Positions 59,988 through 64,000 of a stretch of 64,000 bases of DNA are shown here, piece after piece (position 1 is the first letter of the stretch; each line of letters opens with the position of its first letter). The notes below the pieces were generated by a model that worked only from the letters and a program-made list of their open reading frames with translations, was not told where the DNA came from and searched no databases. Origin of the DNA: Eubacteriales bacterium. Its GTDB lineage: Bacteria; Bacillota; Clostridia; Lachnospirales; Lachnospiraceae. Position numbers and translations under genes: made by a program. The stretch is from NCBI GenBank assembly GCA_030524175.1, contig JAUNHC010000024.1:1-64000 (forward strand), in the 5' to 3' direction.

Positions 59988-60275
59988 TTACGCGTCTTTT
60001 CTAACGACTAAGTATCTTAATACGTTGTCCATGATACGTACATGTCTTTCTACTTCCGCCGGACACTGTGCGTCTGCTTCAAACTGAATAAAGTAGTAGA
60101 AGCCTTCATGCATTTTCTGAATTTCGTAAGCTAATTTCTTCTTACCCCATTCTTCAACTTCTGTGATCGTACCATTGTAACGGGTGATGTAGCCTTTAGC
60201 TTTCTCAACGATTGCTTCGCGTACTTCATCTTCTACTTTGGCACTCACAACTAATGCTAACTCGTACTTGTTCAT
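59988..60275 (-). CDS. rpsF: 30S ribosomal protein S6
   Basis: This 95-residue S6 begins MNKYELALVVSAKVEDEVRE, with the family motif WGKKKLAYEIQKMHEGFYYFIQFEA and VRIMDNVLRYLVV. It binds S18 in the ribosome platform. It is the first gene of the operon, with a consensus promoter and a leader of about 75 nt. GGAGGTAAAGAAAGC precedes the ATG. Confidence 0.97.
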   Translation of the reverse strand: MNKYELALVVSAKVEDEVREAIVEKAKGYITRYNGTITEVEEWGKKKLAYEIQKMHEGFYYFIQFEADAQCPAEVERHVRIMDNVLRYLVVRKDA

Positions 60276-60354
60276 GCTTTCTTTACCTCCTTATGGTCTT
60301 AATGGCCCTTTGCCTGTCAAAGAGCAAGGATATGAAAATATATCACAATTGTTG

Positions 60355-60383
60355 ATTTTAACACAATCTTCGGAGGTTGTAAA
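60355..60383 (-). promoter_or_regulatory. Promoter of rpsF-ssb-rpsR
   Basis: On the minus strand TTTACA (60378-60383) is followed after 17 bp by TAAAAT (60355-60360). The leader contains a small CTTTG/CAAAG hairpin that could serve S6:S18 feedback, which is known for this operon in other bacteria; I cannot confirm the motif here. Confidence 0.65.
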
Positions 60384-60464
60384 GCAGGATTATTCATTTT
60401 TCTTCATATTTTTTATTTTCTTATTTCACCGGAAAAATCTGTGAAGTGATTATGAGAGCATAAT

Positions 60465-61559
60465 TTATTCTATTACTAACACCTGAGTGTGGTTTTGTAA
60501 TAACTCCTCTAAATTAATCAGAAGCCCCTTAAATTCTTTGTGTTCTAAGTTATCATCAAAGTCATGAATGGAAAAATGATTATTCTTCCAATCAAATACA
60601 AGAATTTTCTTAAACATATAGTCCACCATCCAGCATTCCGGAAAACCCATACATTTATAGAGAAAAAGTTTATTTAGGAAATCATCGTTTCTTGTATTAC
60701 TCATCACTATTTCAATACCCAAAACAAGCTTACGGCTGCAATTTCTTTCTCTGTAAATCAATATGTCCGGATGCAGCTCCTTTCTATTCTTATCTCCTTT
60801 GCACTGAACTTTTGCTGCTAAAGCCACTTTATAAAAACTTTTATAATCCTCTATATATTTAATTACTTTTTCATAAAGGCCGCAGGTTATGATTTTTTCA
60901 ATGTTACATTCGTCTTCCTTTTTACCGCCATTCTCTGTGGCAGCTTTTAGTTCAAATTCCGGTACCTCAGCAGGGGAAAGAAAAAACTCCTGCTGTTTTT
61001 CCGTTTGGGGAGCACTGCTTTTACGTATACCCTCTGTCTTTTTTTCCAAAGTAATTTTCTGCAAAAACTGACTTCCGTACTCTGTAAGTTCATATTGCTT
61101 ATGCCTATTAACACGAACCATACCCACACTCTTGAATATTTGAAGTCTCCGGGTAATATCGGTGTTATTAAATTCAATGCCATAATATTGCAGAGCACGG
61201 TTCTGTAACTCCTCTCTGCTCATCTTCTGTTTTTCCAATTGCTCAAGGAGTTCGCCTATATAAGCAATATGCTCATGTATGATCTGGATTAATTCTTCCT
61301 TGCCCCCATGTTGAAGCCACTGCCTTCCTTCATTTGTAATTACAAATATATAGTCCTCTGTTTCCCGAATCAAGCCATAATTCAACAAAGTATTCTGGAG
61401 CAGCCTGATGGTATTTCTATTTTTTATTCCATAACATGTTTCCACGTATTCTTCCAGCTTTATACTGCTTTTCTCTTCTTTAAAAAATTCCAGCAGATCA
61501 CAAATGCAGTCTTCCGCTTCATCAAACTTTGGCAGATATCCAATACTTTCTTTTCTCAT
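60465..61559 (-). CDS. Two-winged-helix protein fused to a Uma2-like PD-(D/E)XK nuclease domain
   Basis: This 364-residue protein appears to join DNA-binding and nuclease parts. Residues 10-75 and 95-175 look like two winged helices (IKNRNTIRLLQNTLLNYGLI with the wing YIFVITNEGRQWL, then NNTDITRRLQIFKSVGMVRVNRHKQYELTEYG). A charged linker follows. Residues 225-355 match the Uma2/DUF820 pattern: HPDILIYRER, then LGIEIVMSNTRNDDFLNKLFLYKCMGFPECWMVD, with Asp, Glu and Lys in the expected order. Uma2 proteins are usually alone, so the fusion is unusual. AAGGAG precedes the ATG by 8 nt. It lies downstream of the type III toxin gene. Confidence 0.68.
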   Translation of the reverse strand: MRKESIGYLPKFDEAEDCICDLLEFFKEEKSSIKLEEYVETCYGIKNRNTIRLLQNTLLNYGLIRETEDYIFVITNEGRQWLQHGGKEELIQIIHEHIAYIGELLEQLEKQKMSREELQNRALQYYGIEFNNTDITRRLQIFKSVGMVRVNRHKQYELTEYGSQFLQKITLEKKTEGIRKSSAPQTEKQQEFFLSPAEVPEFELKAATENGGKKEDECNIEKIITCGLYEKVIKYIEDYKSFYKVALAAKVQCKGDKNRKELHPDILIYRERNCSRKLVLGIEIVMSNTRNDDFLNKLFLYKCMGFPECWMVDYMFKKILVFDWKNNHFSIHDFDDNLEHKEFKGLLINLEELLQNHTQVLVIE

Positions 61560-61637
61560 TTTTATTTCTCCTTTTCATCTCTCCCAGATTTATTATCTGG
61601 TATAAAATTTCGTGTAAAGCAAAACGTCCTATATTTG

Positions 61638-61713
61638 TTATCTTTATTGTTATTTTAATTGCGCTTATCGTTGTGGTTCTAGTCGCGATTCTAGTTGCGG
61701 TTCTAGTTGCTCT
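61638..61713 (-). repeat. Degenerate 12-bp tandem repeat upstream of the Uma2-fusion gene
   Basis: On the minus strand the units GCAACTAGAACC, GCAACTAGAATC, GCGACTAGAACC, ACAACGATAAGC, GCAATTAAAATA and ACAATAAAGATA follow one another with a 12-bp period, getting less regular toward the Uma2-fusion gene. The region lies in the 220-bp gap between the toxin stop and the nuclease start. Translated, it would encode a tetrapeptide ATRT-like repeat, but there is no start codon or ribosome binding site. Confidence 0.55.
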
Positions 61714-61779
61714 GTAGATTGTAACAATTCAGCACAAAAAAATAATGACTTGCCTTTTGTCTTATATCAGCCTGGCATG

Positions 61780-62259
61780 CTATATCATTCCCAGTTCGCT
61801 GTGAAAATAAGGTAAAGCCGAACACTTATATCTTCGGTGAAATTCTTTGTCTATTAGGACTTTTGTACCGTTTATATGATTCTTATACCCTTCCACATAT
61901 TCTTCCGCTTTTTCTGCTATGTATGATATATGCTTCCTCGTCTCAACAAATTCATCCTGGTCAATGACCGCTTTTTCAATACTTAAATATTTCAAATCCT
62001 TTATAATTACTGTTTTTGTATAATCCAATCCTGATTTGTGTTTTTGGGAACGCCTGGTATTCTTAAAATGAAATGCATATTTATGTGAGATTTCCGAACG
62101 ATACGGAACACAAATAAAATATCCGTTATGACTTTGGAATAAAAGACACGCATACCCGCGTGTATGCTTTTTCAGAATTTCCACATATGGCGGATTGGGA
62201 TAATCATCATAAAATTTTTCTGATAATTTAAGTATTTCATAATCAAATATTTTTCCCAC
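61780..62259 (-). CDS. Type III toxin, TenpN-like (ToxN/AbiQ superfamily endoribonuclease)
   Basis: This is probably an RNA-cleaving toxin held inactive by the repeat RNA encoded just upstream. The 159-residue protein resembles TenpN toxins as I remember them: LSEKFYDDY near the start, TRGYACLLF, ICVPYRSEISHKYAF, KSGLDYTKTVIIKD in the middle, and a C-terminal RRYKCSALPYFHSELG. The length is typical. The start is GTG at 62259, with GGGAGG 7 nt upstream. Upstream, in order toward the promoter, are a hairpin attenuator and two 47-bp direct repeats. Family recognition is by eye; the gene layout is independent support. Roles known for the superfamily are phage abortive infection and plasmid maintenance. 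Confidence 0.78.
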   Translation of the reverse strand: MGKIFDYEILKLSEKFYDDYPNPPYVEILKKHTRGYACLLFQSHNGYFICVPYRSEISHKYAFHFKNTRRSQKHKSGLDYTKTVIIKDLKYLSIEKAVIDQDEFVETRKHISYIAEKAEEYVEGYKNHINGTKVLIDKEFHRRYKCSALPYFHSELGMI

Positions 62260-62283
62260 CGTAATACCTCCCGGATAAAATAA

Positions 62284-62306
62284 GCGAGAGGGCTATGCCC
62301 TCCCGC
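62284..62306 (-). terminator. Attenuator between antitoxin repeats and toxin gene
   Basis: GCGAGAGGGC and GCCCTCCCGC form a 10-bp stem with one mismatch and a 3-nt loop. On the minus strand TTATTTTATCC follows, just before the toxin ribosome binding site. In type III systems a leaky terminator here makes antitoxin RNA far exceed toxin mRNA. Confidence 0.75.
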
Positions 62307-62320
62307 AATTTTTCTTCGCC

Positions 62321-62419
62321 CGGTCAAATTTTATTTTACCGACGAGTCGGAACCGTCACTCGTCTCAACATTCGGTCAAATTTTATTTTACCGACGAGTC
62401 GGAACCGTCACTCGTCTCA
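62321..62419 (-). repeat. Two perfect 47-bp direct repeats (antitoxin units)
   Basis: 62321-62367 and 62373-62419 are identical over 47 bp and separated by the 5 bp ACATT. Each unit contains the inverted words GACGAGT/ACTCGTC and the CGGT/ACCG ends. No further copy or partial copy is visible on either side. Confidence 0.92.
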
Positions 62420-62450
62420 TGCTGCGAAGAGAGATAAACATCTCATGATT

Positions 62451-62481
62451 ATTATATAACATAAATTCTCCGAAAATACAA
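62451..62481 (-). promoter_or_regulatory. Promoter of the antitoxin-toxin locus
   Basis: On the minus strand TTGTAT (62476-62481) is followed after 17 bp by TATATA (62453-62458), or after 19 bp by TATAAT (62451-62456). The start would be near 62444, about 25 nt before the first repeat. Confidence 0.65.
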
Positions 62482-62511
62482 GTAACTGCTTTAAATATCA
62501 GGCAGTAAAAA

Positions 62512-62700
62512 TCATACACCTTTCTTCAAATTTTTCGTATTTTTCTCCACCATTTTTCTGGGGACCATGATCTGATGGCCGCAGCCTGTGCATTTAAGGC
62601 GGAAGTCCGCGCCCACGCGGAGGATTTCCCATTCCCTGCTGCCGCAGGGATGGCCTTTTTTCAATGTTACTATGTCTCCAACTTCATATAGAAGGGCCAT
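62512..62700 (-). CDS. DUF951 family protein
   Basis: This 62-residue protein matches the DUF951 pattern common in Firmicutes: GDIVTLKKGHPCGSREWEILRVGADFRLKCTGCGHQIMVPRKM in outline. It has Cys residues in HPCG and CTGCG that may bind zinc, and a basic tail. Its function is unknown. It follows the sirtuin gene by 3 bp and so is probably co-translated with it. Confidence 0.92.
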   Translation of the reverse strand: MALLYEVGDIVTLKKGHPCGSREWEILRVGADFRLKCTGCGHQIMVPRKMVEKNTKNLKKGV

Positions 62701-62703
62701 AAT

Positions 62704-63435
62704 TTATGCTCCTTTGACAACAATTTGTGAAAATACCTGACCTATTGGCTCCTGTATCAGGAGATTTGCGTGCCGGTCTCTGGGCGTTGGGGATTTGTTG
62801 ATCACCACAAGATAATCTCCGCGGAAATAATCGATCAGACTGGCGGCCGGATATACAGCCAGGGAGGTTCCGCCGATGATCAGCACCTGTGCATTGGCAA
62901 TGGCATTCACAGATTCATTAAGAATATTATTATCAAGTCCCTCCTCATATAGGACTACATCCGGCTTGACTATACCGCCGCAGTCACAGTGAGGTATCCC
63001 CTTGGCATGTTTCATGTATGAAAAGTCATGAAATTTTCCGCATTTCATACAATGATTACGGTATACACTGCCGTGCAGCTCCAGTACCTTCTTGCTCCCC
63101 GCCATCTGATGGAGGTTGTCTATGTTCTGAGTGATAACTGCTTTCAATTTGCCGGAACGTTCAAGCTCTGCCAGCTTTAAGTGCGCTCCATTGGGCTTCG
63201 CTGTGTCACACAGCATCTTGTCCTGATAAAACTTAAAAAATTCATCCGGCTTGTTCATGAAAAAAGTATGACTCAAGATTGTTTCCGGCGGATAGTCATA
63301 TTTCTGATGGTACAATCCGTCCTGGCTTCGGAAATCAGGAATCCCGCTCTCCGTGGAAACTCCTGCTCCTCCGAAAAACACAATATTGTCGTGCGTGTCT
63401 ATGATTTCCTGTAATTTCTCAACTTCTCTTCCCAT
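62704..63435 (-). CDS. NAD-dependent protein deacylase (sirtuin, Sir2 family)
   Basis: This removes acetyl or other acyl groups from lysines using NAD. Motifs are VFFGGAGVSTESGIPDFRS, TQNIDNLHQMAG, the catalytic His in LELHGSVY, the zinc Cys pairs CMKCGKF and CDCGG, KPDVVLYEE, and IGGTSLAVYPAA. All catalytic residues are present. The ATG at 63435 has GGGAGGGG upstream; the longer open frame would overlap the sortase gene. At 243 residues it is a normal class II/III-type bacterial sirtuin. Confidence 0.94.
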   Translation of the reverse strand: MGREVEKLQEIIDTHDNIVFFGGAGVSTESGIPDFRSQDGLYHQKYDYPPETILSHTFFMNKPDEFFKFYQDKMLCDTAKPNGAHLKLAELERSGKLKAVITQNIDNLHQMAGSKKVLELHGSVYRNHCMKCGKFHDFSYMKHAKGIPHCDCGGIVKPDVVLYEEGLDNNILNESVNAIANAQVLIIGGTSLAVYPAASLIDYFRGDYLVVINKSPTPRDRHANLLIQEPIGQVFSQIVVKGA

Positions 63436-63466
63436 TTGAACCCCTCCCAAATGTACGGCCGTACGT

Positions 63467-64000
63467 TTACTCAACATCCAAGGTATCAATACGCTTTCCC
63501 TGAACCACAAAACGGGTTGCCTCATTCCCTGTACAGGTGGACAAGGTCACCACCTTATCTTTGATACCTAACTCAACATCATCTGTCTGTATTTCAGAAA
63601 ATCCTTTAATAGTCTTCAGGTATTCCTCAAATTCCTTTCCCGGCCCCTTAAATAACGTATAGGTGTCACTGTTTACGGATGTTGTATAAGCGGATATGAT
63701 TTCATAGCGGTAATTCTTCTCGGGTGTAAGAATCCAGAAGTATTTGCTCTTCTTATAAGTTTCTTCCTTCTGTGAAAAATCCTTCAGCTGTCCGAACATG
63801 GAACCGTTCTTCATATTATGCCCGTATACCAGAGTATTGCAGTCACTGAAATCTCCTTTGTTCTCATAATCCACAAATATAGTTCCTGCAAAATTATAAT
63901 TCTTCTCATAGGTTGTATGAAGATAGGTATCATTATCCTTTCCCTGTACTACAGGATAGCTGACGCCGTCAAGTGCCTCCACATAAATCCAGCCCACCAC
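63467..64000 (-). CDS. Class B sortase, 5' end outside the window
   Basis: This transpeptidase anchors surface proteins to peptidoglycan or assembles pili. The visible 177 C-terminal residues contain the sortase core: YPVVQGKDNDTYLHTTY, the catalytic His in LVYGHNMKNGSMFGQL, the catalytic Cys in VTLSTCTG, and the Arg in ATRFVVQGKRI. The pattern with YGHNMKNGSMF is typical of class B. The N-terminal signal anchor lies beyond position 64000, so the gene is truncated by the window edge, not by mutation. No sortase substrate gene is visible. Confidence 0.92.
   Translation of the reverse strand: MVGWIYVEALDGVSYPVVQGKDNDTYLHTTYEKNYNFAGTIFVDYENKGDFSDCNTLVYGHNMKNGSMFGQLKDFSQKEETYKKSKYFWILTPEKNYRYEIISAYTTSVNSDTYTLFKGPGKEFEEYLKTIKGFSEIQTDDVELGIKDKVVTLSTCTGNEATRFVVQGKRIDTLDVE

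What the first reader, a model, noticed from the sequence alone, without database searches (positions are those of the whole stretch)
61780..62481. Complete type III (RNA antitoxin) toxin-antitoxin locus of TenpIN type
Seen directly: two perfect 47-bp direct repeats, a 10-bp hairpin with a T-rich tail between them and a 159-codon gene, a promoter about 30 bp upstream, and a GGGAGG-GTG start. Known: ToxIN, CptIN and TenpIN loci have exactly this order, and the repeats are the antitoxin. The protein shares LDYTK and SALPYFHSELG-like segments with TenpN as I recall it. Inferred: the repeat RNA folds into a pseudoknot (7-bp stem GACGAGT/ACTCGTC plus CGGT with ACCG) and inhibits the toxin. The repeat sequence and the 7-bp complementary flanks closing the precursor look specific to this locus.
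Basis: partly seen in the sequence, partly recalled or inferred. Interest (0 to 1): 0.9.

Follow-up and report, generated by a model that had tools for sequence, protein, structure and literature searches.

The report
Toxin gene silenced by repeat RNA
This stretch holds a complete bacterial toxin gene of a known kind with its RNA antidote, two copies of a small folded RNA; relatives suggest that bacteria which lost the toxin often keep a single copy of the antidote and that some phages carry a lone copy among their transfer-RNA genes, perhaps to disarm this defence.

Summary
The gene at 61780-62259 (-) passes the NCBIfam TenpIN model (166 vs cut-off 90 bits). Upstream lie a TATAAT box, two identical 47-nt units (52-nt period) and a 10-bp terminator-like hairpin: the type III toxin-antitoxin order. 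Of 19 over-cut-off loci (own included) 18 carry at least one unit; the nineteenth is cut by a contig end. Compensatory changes support the proposed pseudoknot: stem 1 in 5 of 7 pairs, stem 2 among more distant loci. The leader/trailer helix is not specific to this locus: it recurs and covaries. Activity and a ToxN fold were not tested; structure prediction was off. The locus is a new member of a known kind. Two leads go beyond it. Arrays next to an intact toxin hold two units (13 of 14 loci); loci with a broken toxin or none beside the array mostly keep one (15 of 20; Fisher p = 1e-4). And 17 viral contigs (about four sequence types) carry a single TenpI unit, without TenpN in the held stretch, inside or beside tRNA clusters: candidate phage anti-TenpIN RNAs.

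The parts
62451..62481 (-). promoter-like -10 (TATAAT, 62456-62451) and -35-like (TTGTAT, 62481-62476) for the antitoxin RNA
   Evidence: sequence; exact TATAAT at a similar distance in 12 of 18 loci, own included; not listed by the consensus scan
62424..62430 (-). leader arm of the closing helix (TCTTCGC)
   Evidence: pairs with 62313-62319; own leader-trailer pairing beats swapped trailers over 16 host loci, own included (1 of 5000 permutations as good)
62373..62419 (-). TenpI unit 1: stem 1 62410-62416 with 62393-62399, stem 2 62403-62407 with 62373-62377
   Evidence: RNA model R1 74.9 bits (the unit is among those R1 was built from)
62321..62367 (-). TenpI unit 2: stem 1 62358-62364 with 62341-62347, stem 2 62351-62355 with 62321-62325
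   Evidence: RNA model R1 73.8 bits (likewise a model member)
62368..62372 (-). 5-nt linker between the units (presumed place of the toxin's cut; inferred)
62313..62319 (-). trailer arm of the closing helix (GCGAAGA)
62284..62306 (-). intrinsic-terminator-like hairpin between antitoxin and toxin
62267..62272 (-). ribosome-binding site GGGAGG
   Evidence: sequence
61780..62259 (-). tenpN, type III toxin, 159 aa, GTG start
   Evidence: NCBIfam NF047358 TenpIN 166.3 bits, cut-off 90, whole model covered

Best explanation
A complete type III toxin-antitoxin locus of the TenpIN family. One promoter makes a short RNA with two pseudoknotted TenpI units closed by a leader/trailer helix; a leaky terminator lets a little transcription reach tenpN. 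Supported by sequence and comparison: the toxin family, the order of parts, the pseudoknot and the closing helix. Inferred from the characterised ToxIN and CptIN systems: TenpN is an endoribonuclease that cuts the array into units of about 52 nt, the units bind and block it in a closed protein-RNA complex, and phage infection frees the toxin when the short-lived RNA runs out.
For: NF047358 TenpIN 166 bits, cut-off 90. Of 19 over-cut-off loci (own, 7 others in the 200-genome family draw, 11 others in the 391-genome class draw) 18 have at least one repeat unit directly upstream and 17 have two or more; L027 has only 87 nt of upstream sequence. Both stems together on 29 distinct units: 100% of 348 cells pair, shuffles 87.5% (0 of 500 as high), slid controls 16-56%; stem 1 has changes on both sides in 5 of 7 pairs (12 of 500 shuffles reach 5). 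Stem 2 is nearly invariant near the window (4 of 5 pairs never vary) but in a second group 15 units of 7 loci pair as GAGC/GCUC, GGGC/GCCC, GGGC/GUCC and GAAC/GUUC, with two kinds in one array in 5 of the 7 (one more listed row, in L023, is a false match and was dropped). The rival hairpin (CGGU next to stem 1 with ACCG) has no change on both sides and is unpaired at one place in 3 of 29. Copy number follows toxin integrity. Insertion: where both neighbours are held (16 of 29 same-genus loci looked at), DUF951 and rpsF lie about 120-140 nt apart in 13; the window has 2.2 kb there.
Against: No expression or activity data. No structure model could be made. The TenpN profile finds no solved relative (best E 0.13, a ribosomal protein); sequence links to a CptN and a ToxN are short and of middling probability (hhalign 71% and 72%, 46 and 49 columns). 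One covariation measure, further pair types, is not above shuffles (166 of 500). Folding without pseudoknots prefers pairing between the two identical units and, in a single unit, the downstream hairpin. Two relatives, L023 and L139, have an intact toxin with only one unit.
Confidence: 0.93

Rival explanations
1. A decayed TenpIN: the locus looks whole but no longer works.
For: Decay is common: of the 34 R1-positive loci counted, 20 have a broken toxin or none beside the array.
Against: The window toxin covers the whole model without a stop, the two units are intact, and promoter box, terminator and ribosome-binding site are in place. Decayed loci mostly keep one unit (15 of 20); this one has two.
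Confidence: 0.06
2. The repeats are not an antitoxin but a regulatory leader (attenuator) of an ordinary gene.
For: A terminator-like hairpin lies between repeats and gene; pseudoknots can act in leaders (general knowledge).
Against: Units persist where the toxin gene is broken or gone (15 single-unit host loci) and in phage tRNA clusters, which a leader for this gene would not explain; gene order and toxin match a curated type III family.
Confidence: 0.03
3. The toxin is a type II PemK/MazF-like ribonuclease with a protein antitoxin nearby.
For: A distant relative, L034, has a weak PemK hit (18.1 bits, cut-off 23.1).
Against: No PemK hit for the window protein at E up to 1. The gene that follows it, 60465-61559, is a 364-aa protein with weak wHTH and Uma2/PDC-S03-like matches, not a small antitoxin; the gene before it is DUF951, a conserved neighbour also where no toxin lies there.
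Confidence: 0.01

Closest known systems
TenpIN of Photorhabdus luminescens (family founder; PMC5086642 and PMC5377504, passages seen)
   Same: Family of the toxin by curated model; order antitoxin repeats, terminator, toxin. That system aborts phages in E. coli and Pectobacterium according to those passages.
   Different: No direct comparison with that sequence was made. Units of tenpIN loci in gut bacteria are listed as 41-55 nt in 2.1-3 repeats (PMC6315513, table passage seen); the window has 52 nt and two units, so it lies within that range.
CptIN of Eubacterium rectale (PMC4627078, passages seen; PDB 4RMO)
   Same: About two units of similar length, H-type pseudoknot, gene order.
   Different: Toxin similarity only marginal (phmmer E 0.55; hhalign 71% to the CptN-like protein of L019).
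ToxIN / AbiQ (PMC5086642, passages seen)
   Same: Gene order, RNA antitoxin of pseudoknot units.
   Different: The window toxin does not hit the ToxN model; units of 34-36 nt in 2.8-5.5 copies.
Pseudo-ToxI of phage PhiTE (PMC3475682, passages seen), closest precedent for the phage units
   Same: A phage RNA that copies a type III antitoxin and suppresses the toxin after repeat expansion or recombination.
   Different: Wild-type PhiTE has 1.5 repeats that do not make one full RNA; the phage TenpI units here are complete single units beside tRNA genes.

Membership tests
TenpIN (type III TA) | toxin matches the family model above its curated cut-off | tested here: met
   166.3 vs 90 bits, model 1-141 of 141
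TenpIN (type III TA) | tandem nucleotide repeats directly upstream, about two units or more | tested here: met
TenpIN (type III TA) | terminator between repeats and toxin | tested here: met
   (consensus match; function not shown)
TenpIN (type III TA) | unit folds as a pseudoknot | tested here: met
   covariation only; no experiment
TenpIN (type III TA) | toxin has the ToxN/CptN fold and RNase active site | not testable with these tools
   structure prediction switched off; sequence links marginal
TenpIN (type III TA) | RNA is cut by the toxin and neutralises it | not testable with these tools
   needs experiment
CptIN | toxin matches NF047359 above its cut-off | tested here: not met
   not listed for the window protein at E up to 1
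ToxIN/AbiQ | toxin matches PF13958 above its cut-off | tested here: not met
   not listed for the window protein at E up to 1

The most novel reading that the evidence does not exclude
Phages that meet TenpIN hosts carry a ready-made RNA countermeasure: one complete TenpI pseudoknot, mostly closed by its own helix, placed in or beside the tRNA cluster (in some cases near ROOL, tmRNA or skipping-rope RNA), so that infection supplies antitoxin when host transcription fails and TenpN stays blocked. Hosts that lost tenpN may keep a solo unit for a like reason.
Probability: 0.5. Interest if true: 0.8.

Novelty: new member of a known kind. Interest (0 to 1): 0.5.

Why it matters
In the papers seen here TenpIN is the type III family with the least structural work; the profile search found no solved relative of its toxin, and no passage seen gives a TenpI structure. 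The covariation set gives a testable fold for its RNA, and the closing helix is a feature that no passage seen describes. If the phage units neutralise TenpN, phage tRNA clusters would be a place to look for RNA antitoxins and other anti-defence RNAs.

Tried and rejected
Downstream hairpin instead of stem 2: 96.6% of cells pair but without any change on both sides, no better than shuffles. A second array in the own genome: none found, one place only. Rfam: no match in 60000-64000 at E up to 1. TenpN in viral contigs: none with the window protein or L037, one short fragment with L038 (L071), four with closer alignments (L084-L087). Second DNA pattern: 68 stretches, 55 of them new, and none of the 55 has an R1 match at E up to 0.01, so a pattern hit alone does not make a unit. 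INPHARED was asked with three stretches only: one matched 464 records, in the rows shown through the tRNA part; the others gave MT835481.1 (R1 44 bits, stem 1 partly broken) and Bacillus phage BSP18, rejected (13.3 bits). Closing helix of the phage units, one by one: only L180 is clear (5 of 300 shuffles); L153 28, L181 31, L149 40, L182 85, L151 146, L195 155, L156 159, L162 238, L143 240 of 300; it is supported only as a set. For host loci, 10 of 19 have at most 10 of 500 shuffles as good; L013, L022 and L040 have 263, 495 and 125. G625 (L095, 30 bits) was left out of the copy-number table. G676 and G759 carry nearly the same locus (944 of 950 bases); without one, p is 2.5e-4. Loci are related by descent, so these p values are guides. 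The first repeat survey read minus-strand loci in the wrong orientation and was redone.

Full report
What is there. On the minus strand, in order: a TATAAT box (62456-62451), a short leader, two identical 47-nt units 52 nt apart (62419-62373 and 62367-62321), a 10-bp hairpin with a T-rich tail (62306-62284), GGGAGG (62272-62267) and a GTG-started gene of 159 codons (62259-61780). The consensus promoter scan did not list the TATAAT box; it is supported by comparison: 12 of 18 loci, own included, have an exact TATAAT 25-36 nt before the first unit (shuffled rate 0.11).

The protein. NCBIfam NF047358 (TenpIN, equivalog) gives 166.3 bits against a cut-off of 90 over the whole model. Pfam gives no family above its cut-off. 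A profile of 27 relatives finds no solved relative; phmmer with the single protein lists CptN 4rmo at E 0.55, after two Cas7-type chains at 0.18 and 0.19. Profile comparison with a CptN-like protein (L019) and a ToxN (L018; PF13958 129 bits) aligns 46 and 49 columns at 71% and 72% probability.

How widespread. NF047358 matches 16 of 200 genomes of the family (8 over the cut-off) and 19 of 391 of the class (12 over), own included in each; the window protein matches 5 of 64 of the genus, own included, one of the five with a stop inside. On plasmids 68 records match, all under 60% identity; among phage records 2, both Listeria. The window's genome has one copy. The two named relatives are uncultured Lachnospiraceae; no call names the window's own organism.

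The RNA. Thirty-five units (29 distinct) from 19 loci with the same loop were aligned; they were collected by a motif in loop and 3' end, which fixes those letters. Stem 1 (7 bp): 5 of 7 pairs change on both sides. Over both stems every cell pairs, shuffles reach 87.5% and slid versions 16-56%; the measure of further pair types is not above shuffles (166 of 500). Stem 2 (CGGUU/GACCG): 4 of 5 pairs never vary, one alternates UG and UA. Its support comes from a second group, where 15 units in 7 loci pair as GAGC/GCUC (10), GGGC/GCCC (3), GGGC/GUCC (1) and GAAC/GUUC (1), five of the seven loci having two kinds in one array. The script required the pairing, so pairing itself is no surprise there; the matched changes between units of one locus are the evidence. 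Many arrays of the first group also carry two units with different stem 1, each self-complementary (L005, L006, L009, L021, L037, L039, L084, L085); L085 has a third unit that the script did not list as paired.

The closing helix. The leader/trailer complement is general: 16 of 19 loci have at least 6 contiguous pairs, one G-U allowed (L013, L022 and L040 do not; in L002 and L008 the best helix lies further out), with sequences such as CTTCGC/GCGAAG, CTTCATCAT/ATGATGAAG and CATCGC/GCGATG. Own trailers fit better than swapped ones (0 of 2000 permutations; 1 of 5000 with 16 loci and shorter flanks).

Copy number and toxin. An RNA model (R1, stem 1 only) found units in 7 of 64 genus genomes and in 25 of 299, then 29 of 397 family genomes (overlapping draws, strict filters). 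I classed 34 loci, leaving out G625 (30 bits). Next to an intact toxin: two units in 13, one in 1 (G790). Toxin broken, or absent from the held stretch: one unit in 15, two in 5; Fisher p = 1.1e-4, 2.5e-4 without a near-duplicate, 6.9e-5 with that left out and six further intact loci added. Of these 20, 18 genomes were searched whole (not G759 and G795): 8 have no TenpN match at E up to 0.01, the others have the broken gene beside the array or scraps; G605 has a distant match with a stop elsewhere (50 bits), and G651 and G620 a distant one elsewhere without a stop (47 and 67 bits, under the cut-off). G100 has one more unit some 5 kb away. In L122 the single unit joins one arm of each of two different stems, as recombination between repeats would leave it; L102, L112 and L118 keep what read by eye as scraps of tenpN. 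The simplest reading: a live toxin holds the array at two units, and after toxin loss the array collapses. This fits the report that AbiQ needed at least 1.8 repeats (PMC5086642, passage seen). Against a strict rule: G790 and L023 are intact with one unit.

Phage-borne units. A pattern scan of viral contigs gave 70 stretches; the best R1 score is 60 bits or more in 24 of them (pattern and model share letters, so they are not independent). Two belong to contigs with TenpN (L187; L166 is the contig of L085). Three have two or three units and no TenpN in the held stretch (L185, L201, L206). Nineteen have a single unit and no TenpN there at E 1e-3; held stretches are mostly part of the contig (L182 and L191 are whole). 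In 17 of the 19 ARAGORN places tRNA genes on the same strand in the held stretch: between tRNA-Phe and tRNA-Lys in 13 (types A and B) and before tRNA-Lys in L183 (type B, stretch starts there), between tRNA-Gly and tRNA-Leu in 2 (type C), and 11 nt after tRNA-Gly in L180 (type D). L149 and L183 have terminase and portal genes, L183 also a head protease, in the held stretch. Of 11 stretches given to Rfam, L156 has ROOL, L149, L153, L156 and L195 tmRNA, L162 and L180 skipping-rope RNA. Contigs within a type are near-copies, so the independent count is about four types in tRNA clusters, six with L181 and L143.

Is the phage unit kept by selection? Between types A and B the unit is 45 of 48 identical, four tRNAs 62 of 77, 64 of 76, 76 of 87 and 79 of 88, the terminase-like ORF 1211 of 1780, and the gaps beside the unit 9 of 20 and 88 of 118 aligned bases. 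Bias: the scan fixed 18 positions of the unit. Eight distinct units (seven phage and the window) pair fully, with 3 pairs changed on both sides (9 of 500 shuffles reach 3). As a set the own closing helix beats swaps (7 of 5000); one by one it is mostly weak. PhiTE shows that a phage copy of an antitoxin can disarm a type III system (PMC3475682, passages seen), though its wild type lacks a full unit and one pseudo-ToxI repeat failed in an overexpression test. That, and the two-unit rule in hosts, count against one phage unit being enough; high dosage from a tRNA cluster might make up for it, which is inference. Relics of host loci are the main rival for these units; no tenpN scrap was found beside them.

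Insertion. Of 54 other same-genus genomes with DUF951, 29 loci were looked at. In 16 both DUF951 and rpsF are held: about 120-140 nt apart in 13, about 210-245 in two and 855 in one; in the other 13 rpsF is not in the held stretch. Neither tenpN nor the 364-aa gene shows in any of the 29 stretches, nor in 12 longer ones fetched for some of them. In the window 2.2 kb with both genes lie between DUF951 and rpsF, so the pair was probably gained here.

Literature. Searches: TenpIN, TenpI with pseudoknot, type III with Lachnospiraceae, covariation, phage tRNA array/ROOL/antitoxin, phage antitoxin mimics. In these listings and the passages read I saw no report of TenpI covariation, of the closing helix, or of TenpI units in phage tRNA clusters. 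The founding survey (Blower 2012, NAR; recalled) is not held, so a published TenpI fold prediction cannot be excluded. ROOL is described as often lying near tRNA islands of phages (PMC12286853, passages seen).

Noticed in passing
window 60465-61559 (-): 364-aa gene just after tenpN with weak wHTH (Mrr_N) and Uma2-like matches under the Pfam cut-offs and PADLOC PDC-S03 at 9.6e-10; probably gained together with tenpIN.
   Followed up: partly
window 61659-61710: Tandem array of a 12-nt unit (4.3 copies, 77% matches) between the two genes.
   Followed up: no
L156 5297-5347, L149 10919-10966, L162 661-711, L180 11375-11423: Solo TenpI units in or beside phage tRNA clusters, in some near ROOL, tmRNA or skipping-rope RNA.
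   Followed up: partly
L143 123-172 and L156 4489-4835: The two stretches share sequence around the place of the L143 unit (by eye); in L143 a TenpI unit sits inside, in L156 not: perhaps a unit plugged into a larger RNA.
   Followed up: no
L015, L016, L034: Distant TenpN relatives (42-50 bits, cut-off 90); in L034 other, longer upstream repeats (by eye); perhaps a separate subfamily.
   Followed up: partly
L187 41-424 and 692-1285: A viral contig of 141 kb with a CptIN toxin (113.9 bits) directly before a TenpIN toxin (152.2 bits).
   Followed up: partly
L109 (G179): Two TenpI units without TenpN next to a SocA/Panacea-type antitoxin gene (PF13274).
   Followed up: no
L095 1311-1354 (G625): Weak TenpI-like unit (30 bits) beside short ORFs that look by eye like phage holin genes.
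   Followed up: no
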